This document shows positions 18,370-47,412 of a stretch of DNA of 64,000 nucleotides, piece after piece; position 1 is the first letter of the stretch, and each line of letters starts with the position of its first letter. This DNA comes from Tetrahymena thermophila SB210 (taxonomy: Eukaryota; Ciliophora; Oligohymenophorea; Hymenostomatida; Tetrahymenidae). The stretch spans positions 434,001 through 498,000 of the forward strand of contig NW_002476535.1 of NCBI RefSeq assembly GCF_000189635.1, read 5' to 3'. The notes beneath the pieces were generated by a model, which saw only the letters and a program-made list of their open reading frames with translations, was not told the DNA's origin and did no database searches. The position numbers and the translations under genes are program-made.

Positions 18370-18606
18370 TTTTGTAAGACTATTTTTTATTAAATTTTAG
18401 GGTAAGATTTACCTTTATTGATAAGATATTAGGATATATAATAGATTATATTGCAATCTATTTTTCAAATAAAATAAAAATTGTTAGTTGCTTTTGGTCT
18501 TGATTTCATTAGAAAATCCTATCAAATCTTTAAAACATCTTTTTTATATATTAAACTAAAGATTGACAAAAATTTTTAAAGAAAGTCAATATTAAATAAA
18601 AAAACT

Positions 18607-20920
18607 TCAGTCTAATAATTTTTTTCCACAAAATAAAATAATCAAACAAACAAAAAAACATACTTCAACCTTAATAAATTAGTAGATATAAGCTATTATA
18701 TTAATGATTAATTTTGATTCAATTTTAACTTAATGAAGATAAAATTCTTAAATCAACCTTACTTAAATTTTAATTGCTTGAGCATCTTTTTAAGAATTTT
18801 TAGATATAAAATTCTTGTAAATCTTATGATTATTCGATTGTATATTACTTCTAAAAATGATTTTATCTTTCTATTTAAAAATTTTTTTCTAAAATATTGA
18901 ATATTATTAAAATTATTTACTTTAATCCAATTGTGGTGAGTTTTATTTCATCTATTCAGTATTTTAAAGGTTAGCTGAACAACCTACCAGTTATAAAGCA
19001 GCTAGTTATTCTTTACTGAATAAAACCATCACAGCTTTCTTGAGTTATATCAAATCTCTAAATAGTTATAAAACATCCATCATTTGATGCATTTAATTTG
19101 CAATTACTTTGATCTCTGATGACTTCATTCCTTTGATTTAATGTATATTTTATCTGCTACAAATAGTGAAATAGTACCTATGAAAAATGCAAGTAAATAT
19201 AAATTAAAATAAAAAATGACTTTACCTAAAATTAAATATACTCTTCTAAGCCTTTCTTTACAGGATATTATCTTTTAACTAAATAAGTTTTTTAGAATAA
19301 TGCTCTATTTTTTCTTTAAATTTAAGTTTCAATTTTCCTTCATTATCTTTATTTTCTTTATCTACTGAAATTTAAATCAAATTTTGCTAATTTACTATAT
19401 TTTCCTAAAAACTATTAAGTGTTAAATTGTTTGTTTAGTTGATTTGTGAACTATTATTTGGGGAATTTACTGTAAGTTTTTAAGGATTTCTAAGTTTATA
19501 TGAAGTAGGACTATTATAAAATAGTAATTTTTTTTCACCAAAAGAAAATTTTTCAAGTCCATCATTCAAAGATATGAGCTATGTTTCAGATTTTTTCAAA
19601 TTTTCTGAATGAGAATTATTCTGAACTAATTGGTTTTCTAGCTGCTATTCTTTTACTTCATCTTGTTGCTAATAATTTTAATATATTTCACTTGAAAAAG
19701 TTGAGTTTTACTGCATATTAATTGATTCTTTCAACTTAGTATTAAATGTAGGTACAACAATAGATTTTGTATTTTCAACTTCTTCCTTCAACATTTCCTT
19801 TTTCATTTGAATTAGTTAATCAATCAATGGATTTTCTTCTTAGTTACAAATATTATTTGTTTTTAAAATTGTTTGATAGTTGTTTGAGAAAATATTTTAT
19901 AAAATAAGCATGAATATATCTTATTCTAAAATTTTTTATGAAATATACCTACCAATAATTCCAAAGCACATTAATGCAGTTATAACAGTGTTACCTTAAG
20001 CAAAAATTTAAGTTATTGTTGGGAATTATATTTGGGTAAATTCTACAATTTCATCAAGCTATAAAGTAATTTGCATGATTAATGTTAATCCTGTTTTTTC
20101 AAAAATAATCTTTCTATCATAACTTTGTATGAGTGGATTATATTAAATTGGAGAGGAAAAAGTAGAATCAGATTAAAAAATTATCCCTTGTTTTATAATA
20201 GTTTATTACTTGATTATATTGAAAGTTGTAAAAATAAACTCCTCCTTATATGTTAATATATTGATTTCTAAATTTTGATTCCATTTGCTGAGAGGTTATA
20301 TTATATTGTGAAGTATATAATTTAACTTAAAAAGCAGCTGAAAGATTATTAATTATATTATCAATATCACTAGGATCAGCGCAATTATCTGGGATTGTAG
20401 TTTTGTAAACATCTACATCCTAACACCTGTAGCCTAAAAATATAATGCTAGATCTTAAGTTACCCTTTAATCCCAAGGTAAGAGTATTATTTTTAGAAAT
20501 TGTAGAAAAATCTATACATCTATAGTTAGATAGCTCACTATTTGAACATTTAGTTATATTGAGCTAAATCAACTTCATATCAGAGCTATAAAAAAATGGT
20601 AAAAATACTAAATAAGTTTTATTTGTTTATGCCTCTAAATCTCTCAAAGAACTGGTACCATCTGTTTAGTAATCAAAGGCAAATAAATCATTATTTAGAT
20701 CCAAATCGATTCTTTCATTGACGATTACGCTTTAAGACCTATAAGTTGGGTCAATTAGATTATTTAAATACAGATATAGGAGATAAATAAAATAGCCTAT
20801 GATGATGGTTAATACAGAAATAGACAAAATACCTCCGAAAATGGTTCTTTTCCTCAATTTATTCTTTCCAATATTAAATTAAAATTGTTTCGAAAAGAGA
20901 TCGATGTTCTATATTTGCAT
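18607..20920 (-). pseudogene. Array copy 1: two-span membrane protein, frameshifted
   Basis: ATG at 20920 (MQIQNIDLFSKQF). A cytosolic N-terminus is followed by membrane span 1 (ILSISVLTIIIGYFIYLLYL), an outer domain with four cysteines (TKCSN, YRCID, YRCQD, DNCAD), span 2 (QGNTVITALMCFGIIG) and a long Gln/Asn-rich tail with one intron near 19202-19250. The tail carries the family motif LFSKEQLAALQLVGCSANL. At about 20240 the sequence reads actcctcc where four other copies have actcatctcc or the like: a 2-bp loss that shifts the frame in the outer domain. Downstream the original frame is still open to TGA at 18607, so the damage is recent, or an assembly error, or the gene is silent. Function of the family is unknown. 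Confidence 0.75.
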
Positions 20921-21289
20921 TTTTTTCTTTTTCTGTTATTTATTTTCTTGATTATTAAATCATTTAATTTTTTTTTAATTTTTGGATAGCACTTTTTTCA
21001 GTACTGAAGCACATTAAAAAGGAAATATTAAATTAATATGTGGCTGTTGTTGTTGATAATAATCAAAATGAAATTTTATTTACCATGAGTCGAAATTTAA
21101 TAATTAGTTTTTATTTTTTATTTCTACATACGTTAAGTTATAAATTAGAAGGTGGATTTTAAGGTTGACCTTATTTACAATTAAAAATTACTTTTTATAA
21201 AGTTTAGAAAAATATTAATAATAAATTTTTTGATATAAATTGAGCTAAAGTATTAATACCTATTAAATAATAAAAATTATTTTAAAATA

Positions 21290-21805
21290 GAGAAATTTCC
21301 CTACAGTAACACATTTGCTATTTAAAATAGAATGTCCGCATGGAGTTTTTGCAAATACTGGGATTATAGAAATGTGGTCTTTAGATTAATTCCAATTAGA
21401 TAATCTATACTTCTATATTTATGAGGTTTCATATTTTTAACCTGTACTTGAATTGGTTGAAGATGTAATTGTTTTTACTTTTTCAATTATATTATCGAAA
21501 AAGGAATAAATTAATAATTTATAATAATACATGCCTTTATTCTAAATTGATTCAGCTTATTACTCTTAATAATAAAGTAATTTGTTCTTCAATCATTATT
21601 GGATTATCACTCATATGGTTTTCTATTTATAGCATAGCTCATCAATTAAATTTTTGTAAAAGAAACAATATTTGCACCAAATACCACCTGAAATACTCTC
21701 AGATAGTACTAGAAAATTTAAGATAAATATATTTTTACGTATAAACCTTTATTTATAGCTTGTAAAATAATCTATTTTATTTTAATTTAAAGAACGAAGT
21801 ATTAA
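21290..21805 (-). pseudogene. RPC34 (POLR3F) 3' relic, unit 1
   Basis: Aligns with 46135-46755 of the intact RPC34 gene: the CxxCP cysteine region (acacatttgc...tgtccgcatggagtttttgc), the Ser/Thr-rich linker and the end of the intron (aataatctattttattttaattt) are all recognisable. About 120 bp covering the winged-helix code are missing near 21735, and many substitutions and small indels destroy the frame. Confidence 0.8.
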
Positions 21806-22079
21806 CAACATTTCCAAAAAAAATTTATACTGTATTACAAAAATTTATCAATTAAGAATATGACACACTAATAGAGATTGGATATTAATATTAAGAATAA
21901 TAAACGAATAAATTGGATAAAGTTTTCATAATAAATATAAGAAATTATATATGGATAATTGATACTAATAAATTTAATCAGATTTTTAATTTAAGACTTT
22001 TTAACTTTTATTAAAAATAAAAATTATTAATAAATTATTTTCAATAAATAATTTTATCATTTTTTTTTTTCGATTACTT
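21806..22079. other. AT-rich spacer
   Basis: A/T-rich sequence between the RPC34 relic and the transposase fragment; nothing recognised. Confidence 0.4.
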
Positions 22080-22290
22080 AAACGATTCGTCTTTACAAGC
22101 TTAAATAGCTATTTTTGATAATTTTTAGAATTCTCTTGTCATTAAAAAAATATTCATAAACAAAATCATATAAATCCTCTTAGTTGTTGAATACTTATTT
22201 AGAGTTTTCTTACCAAACTTGATCTTACATTAGGCTTCAAACGTTTTCAATATAGTTTGGGTCAGGTTTTTGTCCACCCCCTTTTAGTCT
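22080..22290 (-). mobile_element. Tc1/mariner transposase C-terminal fragment (decayed)
   Basis: Minus-strand translation gives PDPNYIENV, a TGA, then SLMQDQVWQENSKQ, NNQEDLYDFVYEYF and SYLSLQRRIV. This follows the C-terminal pattern of Tc1/mariner DDE transposases: PDLNPIEN-W, a helical region, and a final S-x-x-x-R-R motif. The conserved Trp after IEN is a TGA stop here. Upstream the frame is lost and a GGTGGACAAA direct repeat is seen at 22270-22300. No terminal inverted repeats were found, so only a fragment remains. Confidence 0.7.
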
Positions 22291-22751
22291 TTGTCCACCT
22301 CACTCAAACTTTATAAATTAGTGTATCTACTGCGTCTAGTATTGTTTCTTGAGCTTCAAATGTTTCTTATGTGAAAACATTATATATTTTTTAAAAGTGT
22401 TTTTTACATTTACGTGTATTACTTTTTATTTTACAAAACATCAAATTAAATTGTGTTGTTTTCGAGTCAACATTTTCTGAATGATTTAAGGTTAAAAAAT
22501 AGGTGGCTATTAGTAAATACATATATTTTAATAGTAAAATGATGAAATTTTATAAATTATTTTATATTTTGTCTATGTTAGTGCATGTGTTAGAAAAATG
22601 TAAATAAATGGTTTGATTTAATAAACTTGAAACATAAAATAATTTTTTTTCTTGAATTTAATTTAATTCTATTTGTGTTGGTATTTTAATTAAATAATAT
22701 TAATTGTTAGCGCATGCGTTTGTTTATTTATTTATTTATTATTTATTTATT

Positions 22752-23205
22752 AAAATTAGTTATTTTTTTTTATAGTTTTCTGTAATTATTTTTTTCATTA
22801 CAAACTAAAAAAAAAGACAAAACATTTAAGTAGAAAAAATAGTGAAAAAAAAAAATATTTTCATAACAATGCTAAGAAATTCATTTAATTCAGTAAGATT
22901 AATTTTATAATTAGTGCGATACATGTAATTTTAAAATAACTTTTGATTTTTTTTAATTTATTTATTTATTAAAATTAGTTATTTATTTATTTATTTATTA
23001 AAATTAGTTATTTTTTTTTTATAGTTTTCTGCAATTATTTTTTTCATTACAAGCTAAAAAAAAAAGGCAAAACATTTAAGTAGAAAAAATAGTGAAAAAA
23101 AAAAACATTTTCATAACAATACTAAGAAATTCATTTAATTCAGTAAGATTAATAATATAATTAGTGCGATACATATAATTTTATAATAACTTTTGATTTT
23201 TTTAA
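22752..23205. repeat. Two direct copies of a ~248-bp noncoding repeat
   Basis: The block beginning AAAATTAGTTATTTTTTTT and continuing through atagttttctgtaattattttttt, gcgatacatgtaattttaaaataac occurs at 22752 and again at 23000, with few differences. It begins with ATTT microsatellite sequence, the probable slippage or recombination point. No coding sense is seen. Confidence 0.85.
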
Positions 23206-23864
23206 TATATAGTTTAATTATTTTGCAATTTATATTTTATTTATAAGGCATTTTAGTATAGTAAATTATAATTTTAGTAGCAATTTATTTTTGTGTTGTT
23301 CAACATTTTGTACTATTAAATTTTAATTTTTAGTTATTCTTTTTTAGTAGGTAAATTTTAATTGATAAAGAATCACCAGTATATTAAATTTTTTTATATA
23401 ATATCTTATTCTCATTTTCTAAGACTAGAGTTAATTTAAGTCTCAAATTTTTTTTGTTACTTTTTTAATAAATGCCAAATCTTTAATAAAATATAATTTC
23501 ATTCTTAGTTAATAAATAACTTTCATTAAATTTAATTTATAAAAAATAAAATTATTTTCTGGCAAGTCTTATGGTAATATTATTTGATTTATTTAACATT
23601 TTTAAATATAAGACAGCTTATAAAAATTATTTATTTCCTCTTTAATTTTATTTAAATTGCTTGTCTTTTATACATTGAATGACAATAACCTAAAAGCCTG
23701 GTAAAATACTAAACAAATATAAAAGTGATTGATGTTTAAGAAAATACTTTTTTTATTAGTTTTTTTATATCTTAATAGCTATTGTTTGTTAACTAAAAGT
23801 ATAACAATGACTAATCTCTATGAAATAATTTAAATTCTTTTTTATTTTTGCCATATTTCATTGT
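23206..23864. other. AT-rich spacer
   Basis: A/T-rich DNA between the 248-bp repeat pair and the left end of array unit 2; no features recognised. Confidence 0.5.
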
Positions 23865-24310
23865 TTTTCTAAGACTATTTTTTTTTAAATTGCAAGGGAA
23901 GATTGGTCTTAATTAATAAAAAAGTATGGTAAAGAGTAGATAATATTGTAACCTATTTTTCTAAAAAATAAAACATTTTTGCTTTTGATTTGATTTAATT
24001 AGAAAACCATTTTAAATATTCAAAACATCTTTTTTATATATTTTAACTAAAAATTGACAAAAATTTTTAAACAAAGTTAATATTTAATAAAAAAATTTTT
24101 GTCTATTAATTTTTTTCACCAAATAAAGTAACAAACAAACAAAAACAGATATCATAATATATTAATTATTATTAAAGATTCAATTTTAACTTATTGAAGA
24201 TAAAATTCTTAAATCAACCTTACTTAAATTTTAATTGCTTGAACATCTTCTAAAGAATTTTTAGATATAAAATGCTTGTAAATCTTCTGATTGCTGGATT
24301 GTATATTACT

Positions 24311-26401
24311 TCAAAAATGATTTTATATTTCTGTTTTTAAAAATTTTTTCTAAAATGTTGAAACTTATTTAAATTTTTTACTTTAATCAAATTGTAGTGA
24401 ATTTTATTTAATATGTTAAGCGTTTAAAAGGTTAGCTGAACAACCTACCAGTTACAAAGCAGCTAGTTATTCTTTACTCAATAAAACCATCACAGCTTTC
24501 TTGAGTTATATCAAATCTCTAAATAGTTATAAAACATCCATAGTTTGATGAACTTAATTTGCAACCACTTTAGTCTCTTATGAATTCATTCCTTAGTTTT
24601 AATGAATATCTTTTCTGTTCCGAATAGTGAAATAATACCTATGAAAAATGCTAATAAATATATGTTAAAATAAAAAATAATTCTACCTAAAATTAAACAA
24701 ACTCATCTATGCCTTTCTTTACAGGAAATTATCTTTTAACTAAAAAAACTTTTTGGCATAATGTTCTATTTTTTCTTTAAATTTAAGTTTCTATATTCCT
24801 TCATTATCTTTATTATCCTTTTCGACTGAAATTTATATCAAATTTTGTTAATTTACTCTATTTTCCAAGCAACTATTAGATCTTAAATTGTTTTTAAATT
24901 TGATTTGTTAACTATTTTTAGGGGAAATTCTCGTAAATTATTATGGAATTCTAAGTTTATAAGAATTAAGACTCTTTTAAGATAGTAATTTTTTTTTACA
25001 ACAAGAAATATTTTCTAATACATCATTTTCTGTATATCTAGTATTCGTACTTGTGAGATAAGTTTCAGATATTTTGAAATTTTCTGAATGTGAATTATTC
25101 TGAACTATTTGATTTACTAACTGCTATTTTTTTACTTCATCTTGTTACTAATAATTTTGATATAATTTACTTGAGCAAGGTGAGATTTGCTGCATATCAA
25201 TTGATTCTTTCAATTTAATATTAAATTTAGGTAGAACAATAGATTCTGTATTTTCAATTTCTTCATCCAGCTTATTTTTTTTCATTTAAATCAATTAATC
25301 AATCAAAGGATCTTCTTCTTAGACACAAATATTATTAGTTTTTAATATTTTTAGATAATTGTTTGAGAAAATATTTTATAAAATAAGCATGAATATATCT
25401 TATTCTAAAAGAGTTTATGAAATATACCTACCAATAATTCCAATGCACATTAATACAGTTATTACAGTGTTACATTAAGCAAAAACTTAAGTTATCGTTG
25501 GGAATTGTATTTGGGTAAATTCTACAATTTCATCAAGCTATATAGTAATTTGCATGATTAAATTTAATCCTGTTTTTTGAAAAGTGGTATTTCTATCAAA
25601 ACTTTGTATGAGTGGATTATATTGAATTGGAGAGGAAAAAGTAGAATCAGATTAAAAAACTGCTCCTTGTTTTACAATTGTTTATTACTTAATTACATTG
25701 AAAGTTGTAAAAATAAACTCATTTCCTTATAAGTTGATATATTGATTTCTAAATTTTACATCCATTTGCTGAGAGGTTATATTATATTGTGAAGTATATA
25801 ATTTAACTTAAAAAGCAGCTGAAAGGTTATTAATTATCTCATCAATATCACTTGGATCAGCACAATTGTCTGGGATCGTAGTTTTGTAAAAGTCCACATC
25901 CTAGCATCTGTAGCCTAAAAATATAATGCTAGATCTTAAATTACCCTTTAATCCCAAAGTTAGAGTATTATTTTTAGATACCGTAGATAAATCTAAACAT
26001 CTATAATCTGTTAACTCACTATTTGAACATTTAGTTATATTGAGCTAAATCAGATTCATATCAGAGCTATAAAAAAATGGTAAAAATACCAAATAAGTTT
26101 TATTTGTTTATGCCTCTAAATCTCTAAGAGAATTGTTGCCTTATGTTTGGTAATCAAAGGCAAATAAATCATTATTTAGATCCAAATCAATTCTTTCGTT
26201 GACTATTACACTTTAAGACCTATAAGTAGGGTCAATTAGATTATTTAAATACTGATATAGGAGATAAATAAAGTAACCTATGATGATAATTATTACTTAA
26301 ATTGACAAAATAGCTCCGAAAATGGTTCTTTTCCTCATTTTATTCTTTCCAATATTAAATTAAAATGGTTAAGAAAAGAGATCAATGTTCTAAAGTTGCA
26401 T
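24311..26401 (-). CDS. Array copy 2: two-span membrane protein, early stop near C-terminus
   Basis: ATG at 26401 (MQLQNIDLFSQPFQF). The frame is open through span 1, the cysteine-bearing outer domain (NITKCSN, DNCADPSDIDEI), span 2 (CNTVITVLMCIGIIGRYIS) and the polar tail; one GT...AG intron lies near 24641-24689. The FRDLIQLKKAVM and LLSKEQLAALQLVGCSANLL motifs are intact. Two small indels just after this region bring a TGA at 24311 where other copies continue for about 40 more residues (SNIQSNNHKNYKNF region). The protein may still work, because the lost part is the least defined. A 523-bp part is identical to copy 3. Confidence 0.75.
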
Positions 26402-27288: not shown

Positions 27289-29721
27289 TCATTAGAAAAT
27301 CTTTTTATATATTTAAAACATCTTTTTTTTTATTTTATTTAACTAAAGATTGACTAAATTTTTTTTAAATGTTAAAATTTAATAAAAAAAATTCAATCTA
27401 TTAATTTTTTCCACAAAATAAAATAACAAACAAACAAAAAAACAGACTACAACCATAATAAATTATTTGACATAAGCTGATATATTAATTATTATTATAG
27501 ATTCAATTTTAACTTAATGAAGATAAAATTCTTAAATCTAGCTTGCTTAGATTTTAATTGCTTGAGCATCTTTTTAAGAATTTTTAGATATAAAATGCTT
27601 GTAAATCTTCTGATTACTGGATTGAATATTACTTCTAAAAATGATTTTATATTTCTGTTTTAAAAAATTTTTATAAAATGTTGAATATTATTTAAATTTT
27701 TTACTTTAATCAAATTATAGCGAATTTTATTTAATCTGTTAAACATTTAAAAGGTTAGCTGAACAACCTACCAGTTACAAAGCAGCTAGTTATTCTTTAC
27801 TGAATAAAACCATCACAGCTTTCTTGAGTTATATCAAATCTCTAAATAGTTATAAAACATCCATCGTTTGATGAACTTAATTTGCTACCACTTTAGTCTC
27901 TTATGAATCCATTCCTTTGCTTTAATGTATATCTTTTCTGTTCCGAATATTGAAATAATACCTATGAAAAATGCAAATAAATATATGTCAAAATAAAAAA
28001 TAACTCTACTTATAATTAAATAAACTCATTTAAGCCTTTCTTTACAGGATTTCATCTTTTAACTAAAAAAACTTTTTCGAATAATTCTCTATTTTTTCTT
28101 TAAGTTTAAGTTTAAATTTTCCTTCATTATCTTTATTATCCTTTTCTACTGAAACTGATATCAAATTTTGTTAATTTACACTATTTTCCTAACAACTATT
28201 AGATCTTAAATTGTTTTGAAAGTTGATTTGTTAACTATTTTTAGGGGAAATTTTTGTAAATTATTATGGATTTCTAAGATTAGGAGTAGTACTCTTTTAA
28301 AATAGTAATTTTTTTTCACCATAAGAAACATTTTCTAATCCATCATTTTCTGTATATCTAGTATTCAAAGTTGTTAACTATATTTCAGAAGTTTTCAAAT
28401 TTTCTGAATATGGATTATTCTGAACTAATTGGTTTTCTAGCTGCTATTCTTTTACTTCGTCTTGTTGCTAATAATTTTAATATAACTAACTCGAGCAAGG
28501 TGAGCTTTGATGCATATCAATTGATTCTTTCAATTTAGCATTAAATGTAGGTACAGCAATAGATTCTGTATTTTCAATTTCTTCATTCAGCTTATTTTTT
28601 TTCATTTGAATCAGTTAATTAATCAAAGAATCTTCTTCTTAGAAACAAATATTATTAGTTTTTAATACTTTTTGATAATTGTTTGAGAAAATATTTTATA
28701 AAATAAGCATGAATATATCTTATTCTAAAAGAGTTTATGAAATATACCTACCAATAATTCCAATGCACATTAATACAGTTATTACAGTGTTACATTAAGC
28801 AAAAACTTAAGTTATCGTTGGGAATTGTATTTGGGTAAATTCTACAATTTCATCAAGCTATATAGTAATTTGCATGATTAAATTTAATCCTGTTTTTTGA
28901 AAAGTGGTATTTCTATCAAAACTTTGTATGAGTGGATTATATTGAATTGGAGAGGAAAAAGTAGAATCAGATTAAAAAACTGCTCCTTGTTTTACAATTG
29001 TTTATTACTTAATTACATTGAAAGTTGTAAAAATAAACTCATTTCCTTATAAGTTGATATATTGATTTCTAAATTTTACATCCATTTGCTGAGAGGTTAT
29101 ATTATATTGTGAAGTATATAATTTAACTTAAAAAGCAGCTGAAAGGTTATTAATTATCTCATCAATATCACTTGGATCAGCACAATTGTCTGGGATAGTA
29201 GTTTTGTAAAAGTCCACATCCTAGCATCTGTAGCCTAAAAATATAATGCTAGATCTTAAGTTACCTTTTAACCCCAAGGTTAAAGTATTATTTTTAGATA
29301 CCGTAGATAAATCTAAACATCTATAATCAGTTAACTCACTATTTGAACATTTAGTTATATTGAGCTAAATCAGATTCAAATCAGAACTATAAAAAAATGG
29401 TAAAAATACCAAATAAGTTTTATTTGTTTATGCCTCTAAATCTCTAAGTGAACTGTTGCCTTATGTTTGGTAATCAAAGGCAAATAAATCATTATTTAGA
29501 TCCAAATCAATTCTTTCGTTGACTATTACACTTTAAGACCTATAAGTAGGGTCAATTAGATTATTTAAATACTGATATAGGAGATAAATAAAGTAGCCTA
29601 TGATGATGAATATTACGGAAATAGACAAAATAGCTCCGAAAATGGTTCTTTTTCTCATTTTATTCTTACCAATATTAAATTAAAACGGTTAAGAAAAGAG
29701 ATCAATGTTCTAGATTTGCAT
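27289..29721 (-). CDS. Array copy 3: two-span membrane protein, frame intact
   Basis: ATG at 29721 (MQIQNIDLFSQPFQF), TGA at 27289. Span 1 is ILSISVIFIIIGYFIYLLYQ; the outer domain of about 280 residues carries the four conserved Cys and several NxT/S sequons (NNT, NIT); span 2 is followed by GRYISQ and a polar cytosolic tail, with one intron near 27970-28020. The frame stays open to a hydrophobic, probably non-native end, because A/T-rich 3' flanks rarely contain TGA; the last conserved part is IQEFYLHQVKIES near 27500. The function is unknown; topology alone recalls two-span channels or receptors, but no homology is claimed. Confidence 0.78.
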
Positions 29722-30299
29722 TTTTTTAAATCAGAGGATAGTTTTTTTTTCTATTATTTGTTTTTTGATTGCTCAGTGGTTTAATTTTTTTTTTTAATTA
29801 TAGGATTTACCTTTTTTCAAGGCATAAGCATACTAAAAAGTAAAAATTGAATAATATGTGGATGTGGTTTTTGATATTAAAGCTCAATAATTTTTTAATT
29901 TTTAAGTTTTAATTTACTCTAAATTGACAATAATTTACCACAAATTGAAATTTAATAATTAATCTTTATTTTTATATCCACATACGTTAAGTTATTAATT
30001 AGAAGGCGGATTTCAAAGTTGACCTTATTTTCAATTTAAAAAATTTTCTTTTTATAAAGATAAGAAAAATATTAATGTTTAAATTTTAATATAAAATGAG
30101 CAAAGGATTAATAATATATCTATTTTATAATAAAAATTATTTTAAAATAAAAAATACTAAAATTATAGAATGCTCCTATTTTAATATGTATTTTAAGAAT
30201 GTAATATTTATTGAATCTAAAAAAATTACATTCATTAATGAATGAAAAAAATTAGTCATTTATATATTAATATCTTTAAAACCAGGAACAGCTATATAT

Positions 30300-31800
30300 T
30301 AAAATTATTTACTCTAATAAAATTGTGGTGAGTTTTAATTCATCTATTAAACATTTTAAAGCTAGCTAAACAACCTACCAGTTACAAAGCAGCTAGTTAT
30401 TCTTTACTGAATAAAACCATCAATGCTTTCTTGAGTAATATCAAATCTCTAAATAGTTATAAAACATCCATTGTTTGATACACTTAATTTGCAATTACTT
30501 TAATATGTGATGACTCCATTCCTTTGTTTTAATATATATATTTTCTGTTTCGAATAGTGAAATAATACCTATGAAAAATAAAAATAAATATAAATTAAAA
30601 TAAAAATGACTCTACCTAAAATTAAATAAACTCATTTAAGTCTTTCTTTAAATGATATAATCTTTTAACTAAAAAAATTTTTTCGAATAATGCTCTATTT
30701 TTTATTTAAATTTAAGTTTCGATATTCCATAATTATCTTTATTATCCTTTTTAAATGAAATTTATATCAAATTTTGTTAATTTACACTATTTTTCTAACA
30801 ACTATTAGATGTTAAATTGTTTTAGAAGTTGAATTGTTAACTATTTTTTGGGGAAGTTCTTGTAAGTTATTATGGAGAGAAGTAGGACTGTTTTAAAATA
30901 GCAATTTTTTTCACATAATAAAAATTTTCTAAATCCATCATATTCTATAATTTTCAAATTCATACTTGTGAACTATATTTCAGAAGTTTAAATTTGCTGA
31001 ATGTGTAATATTCTGAACTAATTTGTTATCTCTTCTTGCTACTAATAATTTTAATATAATTTACTTGAGAAAGGTGAGTTTTGCTGTATACCAATTGATT
31101 GTTTTAACTTAGCATTAAATGTAAGTACAGCAATATATTTTGTATTTTCAACTAGCATGTTTTTTTCATTTGAACTAGTTAATCAATCTAAGGGTCTTCT
31201 ACTTTGTTACAAATATTTTTTTTTTAATACTTTTTGATAATTGTTTGAGAAAATATTTTATAAAAAAAACATGAATATAACTTGTTCTAAAAAATTTTAT
31301 GAAATATGACAACCAATAAATATTTCCAATGCAATTCAACGCAGCTAATAAAGCGTTACAATAAGCAAAAACTGAAGTTATAGTTGGGAATTGTATTTGG
31401 TTAAATCCTACAATTTCATGCTATAAAGTAACTTGCATGATTAATGTTAATCCTGATTTTCGAAAGTAGTCTTTCTGTCATAACTTCGAATGAGTGTTAA
31501 ATTGGAGAGGAAAAAGTAGAATCATATTTAAAAATTGACCCTTACTTTATAATAGCTTATTAATTAGTTACATTTAAAGTTATCTCCTAATAGGTTAATA
31601 TTGTGATTTCTAAAGTTTGCTTCCATTTGCTGGGAGGCATATTATATTGTGAAGTTTATAATTTAACTTAAAAAGCAGCAGAAGGATTATTAATTATCTT
31701 ATCAATATTATTAGGTTCAGCACAATTGTCTGGGATAGTAGTTTTGTAAACATCCACACCCTAGCACCTATAACCTAAATATATAACACTATTACTCATT
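30300..31800 (-). pseudogene. Array copy 4: truncated membrane-protein pseudogene
   Basis: Homology to the other copies begins at about 31795, inside the outer domain (ACCTATAACCTAAATATATAAC), so the start codon, span 1 and about 150 residues are missing. A block of about 15 bp is lost near 31580 where other copies have ttgtaaaaataaactc, and the tail has many indels (near 31020, 31150 and 30870). The right junction at 31800 passes into unrelated sequence. No RPC34 relic accompanies it. Confidence 0.85.
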
Positions 31801-31932: not shown

Positions 31933-34312
31933 TCAAGGTAAAATAGGAGAACTTACAGTATTTATTAAAAAAATTTCAATCTTTTAATTTTTTCCACTTA
32001 ACAAAATAAATAAATAAATAAATAAACAAACAAACAAACAAACAAAAAAAAAAGCATACTTCAACAATAACAAATTATTAGATATCTTCTAATATTTTAA
32101 TTATTATTATAGTTTCAATTTTAACTTAATGAAGATAAAATTCTTAAATCAAGTTTGCTTAGATTTTAATTGCTTGAGCATCTTTTTAAGAATTTTTAGA
32201 TATAAAATTCTTGTAATTCTTATGATTATTCGATAGTATATTACTTCTAAAAATGATTTTATTTTTCTATTTAAAAAATTTTTTCTAAAATATTGAATAT
32301 TATTTAAATTATTTACTCTAATCAAATTGTGGTGATTTTTATTTCATCTATTAAACATTTTAAAGGTTAGCTGAACAACCTACAAGTTACAAAGCAGCTA
32401 GTTATTCTTTACTAAATAAAACCATCACAGCTTTCTTGAGTAATATCAAATCTCTAAATAGTTATAAAACATCCATCGTTTGATGAACTTAATTTTCAAC
32501 TACTTTAGTCTCTGATGAATCAATTCCTTTATTTTAATGTATCTCTTTTTTGTTCCGTATAGAGAAATAATACCTATTAAAAATGCAAATAAATATATGT
32601 TAAAATAAAAAATGACTCTACCTAAAATTAAATAAACTTATTTAAGCCTTTCGTTACAGAATATAATCTTTTAACTAAAAAAGCTTTTTCGAATAATTCT
32701 CTATTTTTTCTTTAAATTTAAGTTTCAATATTTCTTGATTATATTGATTATCCTTTTCGACTGAAATTGACTTCAAGTTTTGTTAATTTATGTTATTTTA
32801 CTAACAACTATTTGATTTAAAGTTGATTTGTTAACTATTTTTAGGAGGAATTCTTGTAAGTTTTTATGAATTTCTAAATTTCTAAGAAGTAAGACTATTT
32901 TAAAATAGTAATTTTTTTTCTCCATAAGTAAAATTTTCAAGTCCATCATTTTCTGTATAATTGGAATTCATACTTGTGAGCTATATTTCTGAAGTTTTCA
33001 AATTTTCTGAATGTGAACTATTTTGAACTGATTGCTATTCTTTTACTTCATCATTTTACTAATAATTTTAATATAATTTATTTGAGCAAAGTGAACTCTG
33101 CTGCATATCGATTGATTCTTTCAACTTAGCATTAAATGTAGGTATAGCAATAGATTCTGTATTTTCAACTACTTCCTTCAGCATGTTATTTTTCATTTGA
33201 ACTAGTTAATCAATCAAAGGATTTTCTTCTTAGTTACAAATATTGTTAGTTTTTAATATTTTTTGATAATTGTTTGAGAAAATATTTTATAAAATTAACA
33301 TGAATATATCTTATTCTAAAAGTTTTTATGATATATACCTACCAATAATTCCAAAGCACATTAATACTGTTATTACAGTGTTACATTAAGCAAAAACTTA
33401 AGTTATAGTAGGGAATTGTATTTGGTTAAATTCTACAATTTCATCAAGCTCTATAGTTATTTGCATAATTGGATTAAATCCTGTTTTTTGAAAAAAAAGC
33501 TTTCTATCATAACTTTGAATCAATGGATTATATTAAATTGGAGAGGAAAAAGTAGAATCAGATTAAAAAATTGGCCCTTGCTTTATAATAGTTTATTACT
33601 TAATTACATTGAAAGTTGTAAAAATAAACTCATCTCCTTATAAGTTAATATATTGATTTCTAAATTTTGCTTCCATTTGCTGAGAGGTTATATTATATTG
33701 TGAAGTATATAATTTAGCTTAAAAAGCACCCGTAGCGCTATTAATTATCTCATCAATATCACTTGGATCAGCGCAGTTATCTGGGATAGTAGGTTTGTAA
33801 ACATCCACATCCTAGCACCTGTAACCTAAAAATATAATGCTAGATCTCAAGCTATGTTTTAATCCCAAGGTCAGAGTATTATTTTTAGATATTGTAGAGA
33901 AATCTAAGCATCTAAAATTAGATAACTCACTATTTGAACATTAAGTAAAATTGAGCGGAATCAGCTTAGCATCAGAGCTAAAAAAATATGGCAAAAACAC
34001 CAAATAAGTTTTATTTTATGATGCCTCTAAATCTCTCACTGAATAGGTGGAATTTATTTGGTAACTAAAGGCAAATAAATCATTAAGTAGATCCAAATCA
34101 ATTCTTTCATTGACTATTACACTTTAAGACCTATAAGTAGGATCAATTAGATTATTTAAATACTGATATAGGAGATAAATAAAATAGCCTAAGATCATGG
34201 TTATTACGGAAATAGACAAAATAGCTCCGAAAATGGTTCTTTTCCTCATTTAATTCTTTCCAATATTAAATTAAAATGGTTAAGAAAAGAGATCGATGCT
34301 CTAAAGTTGCAT
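31933..34312 (-). CDS. Array copy 5: two-span membrane protein, frame intact
   Basis: ATG at 34312 (MQLQSIDLFSQPFQF). I followed the frame without a stop through span 1, the outer domain (YRCQD, DNCADPSDIDEI), span 2 (MCFGIIGRYISQKLLEQ), the Gln/Asn tail and one intron near 32585-32635. The outer domain differs from copies 1-3 in a cluster near the N-terminus (YQINSTYSVRDLEAS), shared with copies 6 and 7, so copies 5-7 form a subgroup. The open frame ends in a TTTG/TTTA microsatellite (32005-32050) and TGA at 31933; the true C-terminus is probably earlier, near 32110. Confidence 0.8.
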
Positions 34313-36779: not shown

Positions 36780-39120
36780 TCATAAAAAAATTTCAATCTA
36801 TTAATATTTCCATAAAATAAAACAAACTAACAAAAAAAATACTTCAACCATAATAAATTATTAGAAATATGCTAACATATTAATTATTATTTTTGTTTCA
36901 ATTTTAACTTAATGAAGATAAAATTCTTAAATCAAGCTTGCTTAGATTTTAATTACTTGAGCATCTTTTTAAGAATTTTTTGATATAAAATTCTTGTAAT
37001 TCTTATGATTATTCGATTGTATATTACTTCTAAAAATGATTTTATTTTTCTGTTAAAAATTTTTTTTATAAAATATTGAATATTATTTAAATTATTTACT
37101 CTATTCAAATTGTGGTGAATTTTATTTCATCTATTAAACATTTTAAAGGTTAGCTGAGCAACCCACCAGTTACAAAGCAGCTAGTTATTCTTTACTGAAT
37201 AAAACCATCACAGCTTTCTTGAGTTATATCAAATCTCTAAATAGTTATAAAATATCCATCGTTTGTTGAACTTAATTTTCAACTACTTTAGCCTCTTATG
37301 AATCCATTCCCTTGTTTTAATGTATATCTTATCTGTTCCGAATAGTGAAATAATACCTATCAAAAATGCAAAATAAATATATGTTAAAATAAAAAATGAC
37401 TCTACCTAAAATTAAATAAACTCATTTAAGCCTTTCTTTACAAAATATCATCTTTTAACTAAAAAACCTTTTTCGAATAATGCTCTATTTTATCTTAAAA
37501 TTTAAGTTTCAAATTTCTTTCATTATCTTTATTAGCCTTTTAGACTGAAATTGATATCAAATTTTGTTAATTTACGCTATTTTCCTAACAATTATTAGAT
37601 GTTAATTTGTTTGTCAAGTTTCTTTGTTAACTATATTTAGTGGAAATTTTTGTAAGTTATTATGGATTTCTAATTTTTAAAATATTAGGACTGTTTTAAA
37701 ATAGCAATTTTTTTTGATCATAAGAAACATTTTCTAATACATCATTTTCTGTATATCTGGTATTCAATGTTGTGAGCTCTTTTTCAGAAGCTTTCAATTT
37801 TTCTGAATGTGGTGTATTCTGAATTTATTGGTTTTCTAACTGCTATTCTTTTACTTCATCATTTTACTAATAATTTTAATATAATTAACTTGAGCAAAGT
37901 GAGCTTTGCTGCATATCGATTGATTCTTTCAATTTAGTATTAAATGAGGGAACAGCAATAGATTCTGTATTTTCAAATACTTCCTTCATCATGTTCTTTT
38001 TCTTTTGAACAAGTTAATCAATTAAAGGATCCTCTTCTTTGTTACAAATATTATTAGTTTTTAATACTTTTTGATAATTGTTTGAGAAAATATTTTATAA
38101 AATTAACATGAATATATCTTATTCTAAAAGTTTTTATGAAATATACCTACCAATAATTCCAAAGCACATTAATGCAGTTATTACAGTATTACCTTAAGCA
38201 AAAACTTAAGTTATAGTTGGGAATTGTATTTGGGTAAATTCTACAATTTCATCAAGCTATAAAGTAATTTGCATGATTGGATTAAATCCTGTTTTTTGAA
38301 AAAAAGTCTTTCTATCAAAAATTTGAACTAATGGATTATATTAAATTGGAGAGGAAAAAGTAGAATCAGATTAAAAAACGGGTCCTTGTTTAATAATAGT
38401 TTATTACTTAATTATATTGAAAGTTGTAAAAACAAACTCATCTCCTTATAAGTTAATATATTGATTCCTATATTTTGCTTCCATTTGCTGAGATGTTATA
38501 TTATATTGCGAAGTATATAATTTAGCTTAAAAAGCAGCTGAAGGGCTATTAATTATGTAATCAATATCACTAGGATTAGCGCAATTATCTGGGATAGTAG
38601 TTTTTTAAATATCCACATCCTAGCACCTGTAAGCTAAAAATGTAATGCAAGATCTTAAGCTATGCTATAATCCCAAGGTCAGAGTATTATTTTTAGATAT
38701 TGTAGAAAAATCTATGCATTAAAAGTCAGATAGTTCACTATTTGAACATTAAGTAAAATTGAGCTAAATCAGCTTAGCATCTGAGCTAAAAAAATATGGC
38801 AAAAACACCAAATAAGTTTTATTTTATTAGGTCTCTAAATCTCTCACTGAATAGGTGCCATTTATTTGGTATCTAAAGGCAAATAAATCATTATTTAGAT
38901 CCAAATCAATTCTTTCATTGACTATTACACTTTAAGACCTATAAGTAGGATCATATAGATTATTTAAATACTGATATAGGAGATAAATATAATAGCCTGT
39001 GATGATGGTTATTACGGAAATAGACAAAATAGCTCCGAAAATGGTTCTTTTCCTAGTTTAATTCTTTCCTATTTTAAATTAAAACGGTTAAGAAAACAGA
39101 TCGATCTTCTAAATTTTCAT
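36780..39120 (-). CDS. Array copy 6: two-span membrane protein, frame intact
   Basis: ATG at 39120 (MKIQKIDLFSQPFQF), TGA at 36780. The N-terminus, span 1 (ILSISVITIITGYYIYLLYQ), outer domain and span 2 are open. In the outer domain, one Arg before the second conserved Cys is a TAA (Gln) codon and the fourth Cys sits in DNCANPSDID. The tail after the intron (near 37399-37447) reads QLFRDLIQLKKAVM and LFSKEQLAALQLVGCSANLQ and then a conserved basic stretch (IIFRSNIQSNNHKNYKNF). Confidence 0.8.
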
Positions 39121-39554
39121 TTATTTAATAACAGGATGATTTCTTTTTTTGTTATTTGTTTTTTAATTATTAAGCTTTTGGGCTTTTTTAGAAAAATTAT
39201 ATTATATCAATTATTTTAGTACTAAATCCCACTAAAAAGTAAATATTGAATTAATATGTGGATGAGGTTTTTTGTAATAAAGATTAATAATTTTTAAGTT
39301 TTAATTTACTCTGAATTGAAAATAATTTATCATGAATTATGAATTGAAATTTAATTATTTTACTTAATTTTTATTTCCACATACACTTAGTTCTTAATTA
39401 GACTCTGGGAATCAAAATTTGCCTTAATTTCAATTATTTTAAGTAAACTAAAGGATTAATATCTATTTACTTTATAATAAAAATAAAAGTATTTTAAAAT
39501 AAAAATACTAAAATTATTTGAAATTTATACAAACATTAAAAAAATACAACTTTC

Positions 39555-39950
39555 TAACAAAATTTTTCCTCCTGTAACACATTCGTTAATTGTGTCCACA
39601 TGGAGTTTTTGTCAAAGCTGGAATAGTTGAAATGTGTCCTTTAGATATATTCCAATTAGATAATCTATACTTCTATATTTATGAGGTTTCTTATTTTTAA
39701 GTTATACTTGGATTTGTAGAAGGAAGATGTATTTATTTTTGCCTTTTTAATTTTAGAAAAGAAATAAATTAATAATTTTTAATACATGCCTTTATTATTA
39801 ATTGATTAAGCTATTTACTCTTTATAGCTAAATAATTTTGTTCTCCATTTATTATTGGATTATGATTGATATTGTTTTCTAATTTTGTGAATAGCTAATC
39901 AATAAAATCTTTGTTAAGGATACCACATCTTTATACCAAATACCATCATC
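39555..39950 (-). pseudogene. RPC34 3' relic, unit 6
   Basis: Homologous to 46140-46540 of the intact gene: cctcctgtaacacattcgttaatt, cacatggagtttttgtcaaagctgg and ctttataccaaatacca are shared. A deletion next to the Cys code and several indels break the frame. Confidence 0.8.
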
Positions 39951-42559: not shown

Positions 42560-42899
42560 CAATTAACTTCTAAGACTTTTTTTTTAATTAGAGGGGAAGA
42601 TTAACCTTAATTGATAAGAAATTAGGGTATAATGTAGTTTATATTGAAACCTATTTTTCAAAAAAATAAAAAGTTTTTGCCTTTAATCTGACTTCATAAG
42701 AAAATCGTACACTGTCTTTAAAATATATTTTTATATATTTTAACTAAAGATCGGCAAAAATTTTTAAAAATGTTAATTTTTAATAAAAAAACTTCAATCT
42801 ATTAATTTTACCACAAAATAAAACAAATAAACAACTAACAAACAAATAAACAAAAAAAAACACTTCAACCATAACAAATTATTAGATATATGCTAACAT

Positions 42900-45128
42900 A
42901 TTAATTATTATTATAGATTCAATTTTAACTTAATGAAGATAAAATTCTTAAATCTAACTTGCTTAGATTTTAATTGCTTGAGCATCTTTTTAAGAATTTT
43001 TAGATATAAAATGCTTGTAATTCTTATGATTGTTGGATTGTATATTACTTCTAAAAATGATTTTATATTTCTGTTAAAAAAATTTTTTCTAAAATATTGA
43101 ATATTATATAAATTATTTACTCTAATCAAATTGTGGTGAGTTTTATTTCATCTATTAAACATTTTAAAGGTTAGCTGAACAGCCTACAAGCTACAAAGCA
43201 GCTAGTTATTCTTTACTGAATAAAACCATCACAGCTTTCTTGAGTTATATAAAATCTTTAAATAGTTATAAAACATCCATCGTTTGATGAATTTAATTTT
43301 CAACTACTTTAGTCTCAAACGAATTCATTCCTTTGTTTTAATGTATATCTTTTCTGTTACGAATAGTGAAATAATACCTATCAAAAATGAAAATAAATAT
43401 AAGTTATTATAAAAAATGACTCTACCTAAAATTGAATAAAATCTTTTAAGCCTTTCTTTTAAGGATTTCATCTTTTAACTAAAAAAGTTTCTTCGAATAA
43501 TGCTCTATTTTTTCTTTAAATTTAAGTTTAAATTCTCCTTCATTATCTTTATTTTCCTTTTCGACTGAAATTGATATTAAATTTTGTTAATTTATGCTAT
43601 TTTCCTAACAATTTTTAGATGCTAACTTGTTTGTAAAGTTGATTTTTTAATTATTTTTCGGGGAATTTCTTGTAAGCTATTATGGATTTATAAGTTTAAA
43701 AGGATTAGGACTTAACAATTTTTTTTCACAGTAAGAAAAATTTTCTAATCCATCATTTTCAGTTTATCTGGTATTCAAAGTTGTGATCTATATTTCAGAA
43801 ATTTTCAAATTTTCTGAATGTGGAGTATTCTGAACTAATTTGTTTTCTAAATGCTATTCTTTGATTTCATCTTGTTACTAATAATTTTCATATAATTAAC
43901 TTGAGCAAGGTGAGCTTTGCTGCATTTCGATTGATTCTTTCAACTTAGTATTAAATGAAGGAATAGCAATAGATTCTGTATTTTCAACTACTTCCTTCAG
44001 CATGTTCTTTTTCGTTTGAACCAGTTAATCAATCAAAGGATCTTCTTCTTTGCTACAAATATTATTTGTTTTTAATACTTTTTGATAATTGTTTGAGAAA
44101 ATATTTTATAAAATTAACATGAAAATATCCTATTCTAAAAGTTTTTATGAAATATACCTACCAATAATTCCAATGCACATTAATGCAGTTATTACAGTGT
44201 TACATTAAGCAAAAACTGAAGTTATAGTTGGGAATTGTATTTGGGTAAATTCTACAATTTCATCAAGCTCTATAGTAACTTACATGATTAAAGTTAATCC
44301 TGTATTTTCAAAAGCAGTCTATCTATCATAACTTTGTACGAAGGGATTATATTAAATTGGAGATGAAAAAGTAGAATCAGTTTAAAAAACTGGCCCTTGT
44401 TTAATAATAGTTTATTACTTAATTACATTGAAAGTTGTAAAAACAAACTGGCCTCCTTATAGATTGATATATTGATTTCTAAATTTTACTTCCATTTGCT
44501 AAGATGTTATATTATATTGTGAAGTATATAATTTTACTTAAAAAGCAGCCGAAGGGTTATTAAGGATCATATCAATATCACTAGGAGCAGCGCAGTTGTC
44601 TGGGATAGTAGTTTTGTAAATGTCCACATCTTAGCATCTATAACCTAAAAATATAATGCTAGATCTTAAGTTATTCTTTCCCAAGGCCAGAGTATTATTT
44701 TGAGATATTGTAGAGAAATCTATGCATTAAAAGTCAGATAGTTCACTATTTGAGCATTATGTAAAATTGAGCTTAATCAGGTTTCCATCAGTGCTTAAAA
44801 AATATGGCAAAAACACCAAATAAGTTTTGTTTTATTGTACCTCTAAATCTCTCACTGAATAGGTGCCATTTATTTGGTATTAAAAGGCAAATAAATCATT
44901 ATTTAGATCCAAATCTATTCTATCGTTGACGATTACACTTTAAGATCTGTAAGTAGGGTCAATTAGATTATTTAAATACTGGTACAGGAGATAAATAAAA
45001 TAGCCTAAGATGATGGATATTACGGAAATAGACAAAATAGCTCCCAAAATGGTTCTTTTCCTCATTTTATTCTTACCAATATTAAATTAAAATGGTTAAG
45101 AAAAGAGATCGATGTTCTAAAGTTGCAT
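42900..45128 (-). CDS. Array copy 7: two-span membrane protein, next to intact RPC34
   Basis: ATG at 45128 (MQLQNIDLFSQPFQF). This is the copy lying directly downstream of the full RPC34 gene and probably closest to the founder position. Span 1, outer domain, span 2 and the polar tail with one intron (near 43385-43433) are open. A 3-bp loss in the outer domain (near 44680, TLALGKNNLRSS) keeps the frame. The C-terminal end is uncertain: the frame remains open far beyond the conserved EFYLHQVKIES code at about 42920 because TGA is absent from the A/T-rich flank. Confidence 0.78.
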
Positions 45129-45329
45129 TTTTTAATGACAGGATGATTTCTTTTTCAATTATTTGATTTTTGATTATTCAGTTGTTTAATTTTTTTTAAT
45201 TATAGGATAGAATATTTTTTTTAGTTCTTAAACACACTAAAAATTAAATATTAAATTAGTTTGTGGTTGTGTTAGTTTTTAATAAAATTTAGTAATTTTT
45301 AACTTTTTAGTTTTAATTTACAATAAATT

Positions 45330-46283
45330 GAAGCTAATAAATATCATTAGTTGAAAATTTTAATTATTAAATTTAATTTTTATTACTACATACATTAAGA
45401 ATTTAGTTAGAAAGTGGGAATAAAATAAATTTAACTTATTTTTCAAGTAAATAAAATTTCTTTTTATGAAATATAGTATTAAAAATATTAATGATTATAT
45501 TTTTGATATAAAACGAGCTTAAAGACTAATATCTATCTTATTGATAATAAAAGTATTTTAAAATAAAAAATACTAGAATTTTATTCAAATATATGCTAAT
45601 ACTATTATAACTATCGCTTTATATTTCTATTGAAAAATCACCAGTCATTAAAATAAATACATTTTTCTGGTAAAATTTTCCAAATAACACATTCGCTAAT
45701 TAAACAGCAATGTTCGCATAGAGTTTTTGTCAAATCTGGGATATTAAAAATATTTTGTTTAGGTTGATTGCAATTAAAGAATCTATACTTCTCTATTTAT
45801 GAGGTTGAAGCTAATTTACCATGAATCGAACATTTTAATTATTAAATTAAATTTTTATTTCCACATGCGTTTAGTTATAAATTGAAAAGTGGGAATAAAA
45901 TTTAACTTTTTTTCAAGAAAATAAAATTTATTTTTATAAAATATAGAAAAACGTTAATGATTATATTTTAGATATAGAGTGAGCTTAAGGATTAATATCT
46001 ATCTACTTTATAATAAAAAGTATTTTAAAATATATAAAATACTAGAATTATATCCAAATATATATTTATACTTTTATAACTATCATTTTATATTTCTATT
46101 GAAAAATCACCAATCATTAAAATAAATACAATTTTCTGGTGAAATTTTCCCTCCAGGAACACATTCGTTAATTAAAGGACAATGTCCGCACGGAGTTTTT
46201 GTCAAAGCTGGGATAGTAGAAATGTGGTCTTTAGATTTATTCCAATTTGATAATCTATACTTCTATATTTATGAGGTTCCTTA
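45330..46283. repeat. Local direct duplication of the RPC34 3' end and flank (~477 bp x 2)
   Basis: The block starting GAAGCTAAT at 45330 recurs at 45807. Each copy contains the A/T-rich flank (acatacgttt...aagtgggaataaaat, tattttaaaataaaa) and the RPC34 C-terminal code (ccaatcattaaaataaatac, ttttctgg). The right copy is part of the functional gene; the left one is decayed and also serves as the unit 7 relic. Confidence 0.85.
45640..45806 (-). pseudogene. RPC34 3' relic, unit 7
   Basis: A 165-bp copy of the RPC34 C-terminus code with losses around the Cys codons (tggtaaaattttccaaataacac) and changed linker, inside the local direct duplication. Confidence 0.75.
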
Positions 46284-47412
46284 TTTTTAAGCTGTACTTG
46301 AATTGGTTGATGTTGTAATTGTTTTTACTTTTTCAATTTTATCATCGAAAAGTAATAAATTAATAATTTATAGTACATGTCTTTATTCTAAATTGATTGA
46401 GCTATTAACTCTTAATAACTAAATAATTTATTCTTCAGTCATTATAGGATTATGATTCATATGGTTTTCTATTTTTGAGCATAACTCATCAATTAAATCT
46501 TTGTTAAGGACACCATCTTTATACCAAATACCACCTGAAATACTTTCAGACAGTTCTAGATTGTTTAAAATAAATATATTTTTACCCTTTCCTGTACTAT
46601 TTGCACCTTTAACTGATTTAATCCAATTTTTTTTCTTAAGTTAATTCAATATTTTAGTTAAAGTTCCCGTTGCAATACCAGTTTTATTGCCTATATCCTT
46701 TCTATCGATACCTTTATTTTTAGCTTGGAAAATAATCTATTTTATTTTAATTTAAAAAATAAAGTTTTAACAGTGTATCCAAACAAGAATTTATTATTTA
46801 AGTAATTTATTAAATAACAATTTCTTTTGCTATAAATAATAATTAATTTGAAGTTAGCCTAAAAATCATCTTTTTAAAGATAAACTATGATAGGATAAGA
46901 TCTATTATGTAGAAAATCAAGTATAATTTTATATTATTAATACATTTACTATCTTTTTAAGGTAATCTTAGATATTTATTTTTATTCAATATACCATATT
47001 CACAAATTTCCTAAATTATTTGCTTCAGTTTTTTTAATGTGTCTATCAAAAAATATTTGAAATGTCAATAAAATTATTGTTATTTCATAAATTTGAAAGA
47101 GAATTTAGTATTAAATATCAGTTTTATTGCATTTTTAAACTTTATTATTACCTTATAAACTTAAAATTCTTGCTGAGGTAGATCGCTTGCTGCCACATTT
47201 AGTTATTTCTAATCTTGAGGATCATGGTACTCTACTATTTATTCATTACCTACATTAGTGCAAGTTAAATAGCCTTCTTTTAATAAATTCTATAATTCTG
47301 GCTTAATGGCATTTTAATCAACTTCTAATATCTTTAATAGTTCAGTTAAAGTTATACCCTCTTGGTATGATTTCACTATCCCAATTATCTTTTCTGAATA
47401 TTCTTCTTCCAT
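46107..47412 (-). CDS. POLR3F: RNA polymerase III subunit RPC6/RPC34
   Basis: Two exons (47412-47152 and 46736-46107) with a 415-bp intron give 296 residues, close to the human 316. The subunit belongs to the RPC3-RPC6-RPC7 subcomplex that opens the promoter and contacts TFIIIB. Winged helix 1 is in exon 1 (ITLTELLKILEVDQNAI). Winged helix 2 starts at the exon junction (QVYK|IIFQAKNKGIDRKDIG, then TGTLTKILNQLKKKNWIKSV). The C-terminus has the Fe-S cluster motif TPCGHCPLINEC, then ENCIYFNDW and TGA, with all four cysteines. The segment SGGIWYKDG is typical of the family. The ATG at 47412 starts right before helix 1. Partial copies of its 3' end are scattered through the array to the left. Confidence 0.95.

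What the first reader, a model, noticed from the sequence alone, without database searches (positions are those of the whole stretch)
18370..46300. Tandem array of seven ciliate-specific two-span membrane proteins
Seven same-strand copies share a conserved plan: short N-terminus, one span, an outer domain with four cysteines and N-glycosylation sequons, a second span, and a Gln/Asn-rich inner tail with the motif LFSKEQLAALQLVGCSANL. The most conserved parts are the outer domain and the tail motif, which suggests a recognition or surface role. Seeing intact, frameshifted and truncated copies together marks an active birth-and-death family. Function is undescribed to my knowledge.
Basis: partly seen in the sequence, partly recalled or inferred. 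Interest (0 to 1): 0.75.

Follow-up and report, generated by a model that had tools for sequence, protein, structure and literature searches.

The report
Expanded ERGIC-like ciliate membrane protein family
A row of seven related two-span membrane protein genes in a ciliate belongs to a very large gene family that seems to share its front end with ER-to-Golgi cargo receptors, but carries a different outer domain and a long inner tail of unknown job.

Summary
The array is real: seven minus-strand copies (18.7-45.1 kb), of which four are intact (699-707 aa), one is frameshifted in the last exon, one is frameshifted mid-gene and one is 5'-truncated. A decayed eighth lies on the plus strand near 17.3-17.9 kb. 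The family is far larger: at least 152 ectodomain exons on 50 contigs of the same 101 Mb genome (union of two capped searches); all 88 neighbouring pairs within 15 kb there are same-strand. Across 25 aligned members (5 from the window) the outer domain keeps four Cys (25/25) and three N-glycosylation sequons (25, 24 and 23 of 25), which supports a luminal or outer face.

The N-terminus and first span resemble ERGIC_N (Pfam PF13850). It matches 20 of 25 members, passes the curated cut-off in a sister cluster (E about 2e-6), and none of ten reversed controls. The window copies themselves stay below the cut-off. The second ERGIC domain (PF07970) was not found, and the tail is about 350 aa. So this is not filed as an ERGIC protein, but as an ERGIC_N-headed offshoot.

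Pairwise dN/dS is below 1 in every region (0.26-0.59). Function is inferred: a receptor or adaptor of the secretory system or surface. Other ciliates and expression could not be tested.

The parts
18722..20920 (-). copy 1: starts like the others, frame broken mid-ectodomain (stop after aa 250); the rest of the gene, including the tail motif and last exon, lies in other frames
24183..26401 (-). copy 2: complete exon 1 and tail motif; frameshift in the last exon (model stops at 24311, 663 aa)
27503..29721 (-). copy 3: intact, 706 aa, two introns
30157..31799 (-). copy 4: lacks the first ~150 codons, frameshifted; its end no longer aligns well with the last exon of the others
32115..34312 (-). 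copy 5: intact, 699 aa, two introns
36898..39120 (-). copy 6: intact, 707 aa, two introns
42919..45128 (-). copy 7: intact, 703 aa, two introns (reference copy)
44973..45059 (-). copy 7 transmembrane span 1 (within aa 24-52), inside the ERGIC_N-like segment (aa 19-74)
44217..44960 (-). copy 7 outer domain (aa 57-304): Cys 125, 135, 165, 179; sequons at Asn 100, 144, 206
44142..44219 (-). copy 7 transmembrane span 2 (about aa 304-329, ends approximate)
   Evidence: hydropathy windows 304-323; the low-confidence model gives a helix at 312-332
43378..43425 (-). copy 7 intron 1 (48 nt, GT-AG; one-base length differences among copies)
43121..43377 (-). copy 7 exon 2 with the conserved tail module ..VLQLFKDFIQLKKAVMVLFSKEQLAALQLVGCSANL
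43071..43120 (-). copy 7 intron 2 (50 nt, GT-AG)
42919..43070 (-). copy 7 exon 3, C-terminal module NHFQKQYTI..LKRC..LRILSSLSQN
17291..17911 (+). decayed, inverted eighth relative of the family
   Evidence: tblastn E 7.65e-7; profile E 0.0018

Best explanation
The array is one cluster of a very large ciliate family of two-span proteins that descends from, or borrowed the N-terminal module of, the ERGIC/Erv41-Erv46 family. Shown by sequence: a short basic N-terminus with a D-x-F ... T-x-x-G motif and a first span like ERGIC_N; a four-Cys outer domain with conserved N-glycosylation sequons; a second span; and a ~350-residue inner tail ending in two conserved modules on separate exons. Inferred: both ends face the cytosol and the outer domain faces the lumen or the outside; the protein is made in the ER and works as a receptor or adaptor, the outer domain binding a secretory or surface partner and the tail module docking cytosolic machinery. 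Tandem duplication supplies many similar receptors, with frequent loss of copies.
For: ERGIC_N is the only Pfam family matched by more than 3 of 25 members (20 of 25, best E 2.1e-5). Four C116-cluster members exceed the curated cut-off in the genome search, and two C116 proteins give E 2.4e-6 and 1.6e-6. Of 44 ERGIC_N places in the genome at E<=1, 24 coincide with the 152 family exons (my comparison by eye). hhalign of the family against N-termini of true ERGIC genes of the same genome: probability 89.6%, E 1.9e-6, in register with span 1; reversed template 0.2%. One of those genes (L069) is confirmed as ERGIC-type by a PDB match to yeast Erv41, E 1.1e-8. Column shuffles: 299 of 300 scored at most 27.1 against 44.4. 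A D-x-F..T-x-x-G pattern, written after seeing the sequences, is in 24 of 25 members and in 4 of 4 true ERGIC N-termini. Invariant Cys and sequons. Purifying selection in all regions.
Against: COPIIcoated_ERV (PF07970) is matched by 0 of 25 members at E<=1, and the 5 PF07970 places in the genome are none of the family's. hhalign finds no similarity in the C-terminal half, and against the single L069 protein it gives only 16% and E 0.0016. The window's own copies score below the ERGIC_N cut-off (16.1 against 27 bits; 17.4 and 20.2 bits). A reversed control N-terminus reached E 3.1e-4 with an unrelated family, so span-rich matches can be inflated; one of 300 shuffles scored 135 with 8% identity, which I take for a gap artefact. 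The AlphaFold model is poor (pLDDT 36.9) and its fold search meaningless. No localisation, ligand or expression data.
Confidence: 0.45

Rival explanations
1. Cell-surface or ciliary-membrane receptors/adhesins: the ERGIC_N-like head is only an ancient membrane-insertion module, and the proteins act at the plasma membrane, sensing or binding environmental or partner molecules, with the tail signalling inside.
For: Four-Cys outer domain with conserved sequons, a long conserved inner tail unlike ERGIC proteins, a huge clustered family, and short N-terminal exons of the ERGIC_N type at C17 and C162 that are followed by no significant family outer domain in the 1.4-1.6 kb pieces read.
Against: No sign of diversifying selection on the outer domain (pooled dN/dS 0.36). 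No localisation data in hand. The N-terminal similarity is to endomembrane cargo receptors.
Confidence: 0.33
2. Unrelated two-span proteins, for example a channel-like or structural family, whose span 1 only resembles ERGIC_N by composition.
For: Only the N-terminal ~60-75 residues match; the rest matches nothing convincing in Pfam, NCBIfam or the PDB sequence searches. Reversed sequences can reach E 3.1e-4 with an unrelated family.
Against: Matches are specific to ERGIC_N, in the right place and register, in 20 of 25 members, with the curated cut-off exceeded in a sister cluster. Reversed sequences give 0 of 10 ERGIC_N matches. No P2X, ASC/ENaC or CD36 family is among the 17 families listed for A1 members at E<=1.
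Confidence: 0.15
3. Largely redundant, weakly constrained paralogues kept by tandem duplication and drift with no copy-specific role.
For: Broken copies are common locally (3 of 7 plus a relic). The middle tail evolves fast (dN/dS 0.59).
Against: Four of seven copies are intact, dN/dS is 0.26-0.36 outside the middle tail, and the Cys and sequons persist in members only 41-49% identical to copy 7.
Confidence: 0.07

Closest known systems
ERGIC / Erv41-Erv46 cargo receptor family (ERGIC_N PF13850 + COPIIcoated_ERV PF07970)
   Same: Short N-terminus with D-x-F..T-x-x-G, first span, large loop, second span; ERGIC_N matched, over the cut-off in a sister cluster.
   Different: No PF07970 match, ~350-residue inner tail with its own modules, no KKxx end, at least 152 exons against five PF07970 places on three contigs in the same genome.
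Tetrahymena tandem-expanded, rapidly evolving gene families (e.g. the LRR genes of PMC6564038; passages seen)
   Same: Tandem clusters and rapid turnover.
   Different: No LRR match in the Pfam scan of the exons; the passages seen do not mention this family.
Ciliate surface (immobilisation) antigens (features recalled, not from a call)
   Same: Cys-bearing outer domain, multigene family.
   Different: Those are recalled as GPI-anchored with periodic Cys; these have two spans and a long inner tail.

Membership tests
ERGIC / Erv41-Erv46 | N-proximal ERGIC_N domain (PF13850) | tested here: met
   20 of 25 members at E<=1, best 2.1e-5; 4 family members over the curated cut-off in the genome search; two C116 proteins over it in a full Pfam scan. 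The window copies themselves are below the cut-off, so it is met for the family, not for these copies alone
ERGIC / Erv41-Erv46 | C-proximal COPIIcoated_ERV domain (PF07970) | tested here: not met
   0 of 25 members at E<=1; 5 places in the genome, none in the family; no hhalign similarity
ERGIC / Erv41-Erv46 | two spans separated by a large loop | tested here: met
   hydropathy of copy 7
ERGIC / Erv41-Erv46 | short tails at both ends (PMC4729789, passages seen) | tested here: not met
   inner tail of ~350 residues
ERGIC / Erv41-Erv46 | dilysine-type COPI signal at the C-terminus (KKxx in Erv46; PMC4729789, passages seen) | tested here: not met
   the four intact copies end ..LSSLSQN
ERGIC / Erv41-Erv46 | luminal beta-sandwich as in Erv41 (PMC4729789 passages; PDB 3zlc) | tested here: inconclusive
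   AlphaFold model pLDDT 36.9, fold search uninformative
ERGIC / Erv41-Erv46 | cycling between ER and Golgi, cargo binding | not testable with these tools
   needs localisation and pull-down
P2X / ASC-ENaC / CD36 (two-span proteins, topology recalled) | family domain in Pfam | tested here: not met
   none among the 17 families matched by A1 members at E<=1

The most novel reading that the evidence does not exclude
A ciliate lineage turned an ERGIC-type cargo receptor head into a private superfamily of more than 150 two-span receptors with new outer domains and a new cytosolic docking tail, and the same head may also be joined to other outer domains (the C17 and C162 exons). If true, it would be the largest radiation of an ERGIC-type protein that I know of (recalled; no survey was run), and a candidate sorting or sensing repertoire of the ciliate secretory system.
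Probability: 0.4. Interest if true: 0.65.

Novelty: new variant of a known kind. Interest (0 to 1): 0.45.

Why it matters
Ciliates have elaborate secretion and surfaces, but the receptors that sort their many paralogous cargoes are poorly known (recalled). A family of this size with an ERGIC-type head gives a concrete candidate set, with testable landmarks: three conserved glycosylation sites, four cysteines, and a tail module with invariant K-K-A, Q-x-A and G-x-S. It also suggests that generic 'transmembrane protein' labels may hide very large, old families.

Tried and rejected
AlphaFold with an alignment of five window copies (84-85% identical to the first) gave pLDDT 36.9. Its Foldseek search had no hit at E<=0.001 and is meaningless.

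PDB sequence searches with copy 7 exon 1, the family profile and the tail profile gave no credible relative. NCBIfam gave nothing shared by more than 2 of 25 members. The tail module matched nothing shared by more than 3 of 19 members in Pfam, best E 0.026 with DUF835.

A homologous C-terminal half was looked for and not found. Relatives in viral contigs and prokaryote genomes (family alignment) and plasmids (paralogue L046): none. Literature searches for ERGIC/Erv with Tetrahymena or ciliates, and for large tandem Tetrahymena families, showed no description of this family in the listings or in the passages seen of PMC6564038, PMC10868616, PMC4729789 and PMC3341644. Most subscription papers and all ciliate databases are outside these tools.

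An alternative reading of intron 1 as a coding hydrophobic stretch was considered. I prefer an intron: one-base length differences among the copies and consistent GT-AG ends argue for it. It is not proven without transcripts. A first translation of the fetched loci read minus-strand places on the wrong strand and was redone.
Full report
What is in the window. The window is part of contig 39 of a 101 Mb, 445-contig genome. Family frames hold many TAA and TAG (for example 4 TAG and 18 TAA in copy 7 exon 1) and are open when these are read as Gln, as in ciliates; G+C is 16-28% in 2 kb steps. The seven repeats found without any model have start-to-start spacings of 5.5, 3.3, 2.6, 2.0, 4.8 and 6.0 kb.

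Gene models. All seven genes are on the minus strand. Exon 1 carries the N-terminus, both spans, the outer domain and most of the inner tail. A 48-49 nt intron, exon 2 with the conserved tail motif, a 50-51 nt intron and a last exon ending LSSLSQN follow. Copies 3, 5, 6 and 7 are intact (706, 699, 707, 703 aa). Copy 2 is frameshifted in the last exon, copy 1 is frameshifted in the outer domain, and copy 4 is truncated and frameshifted. Sequencing or assembly error cannot be excluded for single frameshifts. A decayed relative lies on the plus strand at 17291-17911.

Family size. With the 357-residue exon of copy 7, the own-genome search returned 114 scored places; with a C116 member it returned 111. 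Both searches score only the best candidates. Their union is 152 places on 50 contigs, the window contributing six (copy 4 and the relic are not in it); 121 of 152 have another within 15 kb, and of the neighbouring pairs within 15 kb, 88 are same-strand and 0 opposite. The plus-strand relic in the window is an exception outside that count. Two tail-motif searches each scored 150 places. So the array is one cluster of a very large family; the largest cluster in the union has 15.

Anatomy across the family. In an alignment of 25 exons (25 of the 30 fetched; the truncated copy 1 piece and four close duplicates were left out; five rows are window copies), four Cys are present in 25 of 25, and sequons at copy 7 Asn 100, 144 and 206 in 25, 24 and 23 of 25. 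Basic residues precede span 1 (5 K/R against 1 D/E in residues 1-27). Together these favour cytosolic ends and a luminal or outer central domain (inference). The tail module is shared by the 19 tails aligned (19 of 30 fetched, two from the window), with invariant D, K, K, A, Q, A, G and S. A loose pattern for the third-exon module hit 18 of the 30 loci, at least two of them spuriously.

Selection. Pooled dN/dS among copies 2, 3, 5, 6 and 7 is 0.32 (N-terminus and span 1), 0.36 (outer domain), 0.27 (span 2 and helix), 0.59 (middle tail), 0.35 (exon 2), 0.26 (exon 3, without copy 2) and 0.43 overall; pairwise dS is 0.11-0.30. Region ends were set by residue number, and the 'exon 2' region takes in about nine residues of exon 3. 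This is purifying selection in every region by a pairwise counting method, which cannot see a few positively selected sites.

Relation to ERGIC proteins. Copy 7 matched ERGIC_N weakly (E 0.013, below the cut-off). Scanning 25 members gave ERGIC_N in 20, best E 2.1e-5; the next family had 3 members, and fifteen others one each. Searching the genome with ERGIC_N at E<=1 gave 44 places, many of them weak. By my comparison are family exons of the union, 5 belong to true ERGIC genes, 2 (C5 and C122:1298064) proved to be further relatives (profile E about 1e-50), and 13 others are outside the union. Of those 13 I fetched three (C17:265331, C17:298508, C162:270020): the first shows no significant profile match (E 0.26), the other two match only the first ~50 profile positions. 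Four C116 members pass the curated cut-off, and the two C116 proteins scanned give E 2.4e-6 and 1.6e-6 against all of Pfam; L074 carries the family tail motif. hhalign of the family (25 members plus three C116 pieces) against N-termini of true ERGIC genes gave 89.6% and E 1.9e-6, in register with span 1; the reversed template gave 0.2%. An earlier comparison with the single L069 protein gave only 16%, E 0.0016, in the same register. L069 itself matches yeast Erv41 in the PDB (E 1.1e-8). Of 300 column shuffles that kept the span, 299 scored at most 27.1 (real 44.4) and one scored 135 with 8% identity, which I read as a gap artefact.

Against it: a reversed family N-terminus reached E 3.1e-4 with an unrelated family, although none of ten reversed sequences matched ERGIC_N. 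The second ERGIC domain was not found in any of the 25 members or at any family place, and the C-terminal halves do not align.

Interpretation. The head is probably homologous to ERGIC_N (my estimate 0.75). Whether the whole protein descends from an ERGIC gene, with a diverged outer half, or only the head was borrowed, is open. The long tail and the missing PF07970 fail two defining features of ERGIC/Erv41-Erv46 proteins as listed in PMC4729789 (passages seen), so I do not file it as a member. By analogy I think a receptor/adaptor role most likely, in the secretory system or at the surface. That step is inference.

Neighbourhood. The array lies among unrelated genes, with an RNA polymerase III Rpc34-like gene next to copy 7 (E 8.1e-38). 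No tRNA was found in the window (bacterial code).

Literature. No description of the family was seen in the listings of searches or in the passages seen of PMC6564038, PMC10868616, PMC4729789 and PMC3341644. The library lacks most subscription papers and all genome databases, so the genes may well be annotated there under generic names.

Noticed in passing
window 46107-46820 (-) and about 45300-46100 (-): The Rpc34-like RNA polymerase III subunit gene upstream of copy 7 (E 8.1e-38) seems to have a decayed partial repeat of its Cys-rich C-terminal end between it and copy 7 (similar peptides in the frames), perhaps a trace of unequal crossing-over.
   Followed up: partly
L077 (C81:703300-707500): Neighbouring true ERGIC-type gene pieces (PF07970 and ERGIC_N), apparently a tandem pair, on the same contig as clusters of the array family.
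   Followed up: partly
L078-L080 (C17:265200-266800, C17:298400-299800, C162:268900-270300): Short exons of the type D-I-F-G..N-Y....T/S..GG plus one span match ERGIC_N, while the family profile matches at most about their first 50 positions significantly: possibly the same head on other outer domains.
   Followed up: partly
window 55829-60835 (-): 1668-codon frame with a protein kinase domain followed by many TPR repeats.
   Followed up: no
window 48799-49809 (+), 50690-52006 (+), 5270-6841 (-): BART-type ARL2-binding domain, class I aminoacyl-tRNA synthetase piece and GHMP kinase piece: ordinary flanking genes.
   Followed up: no
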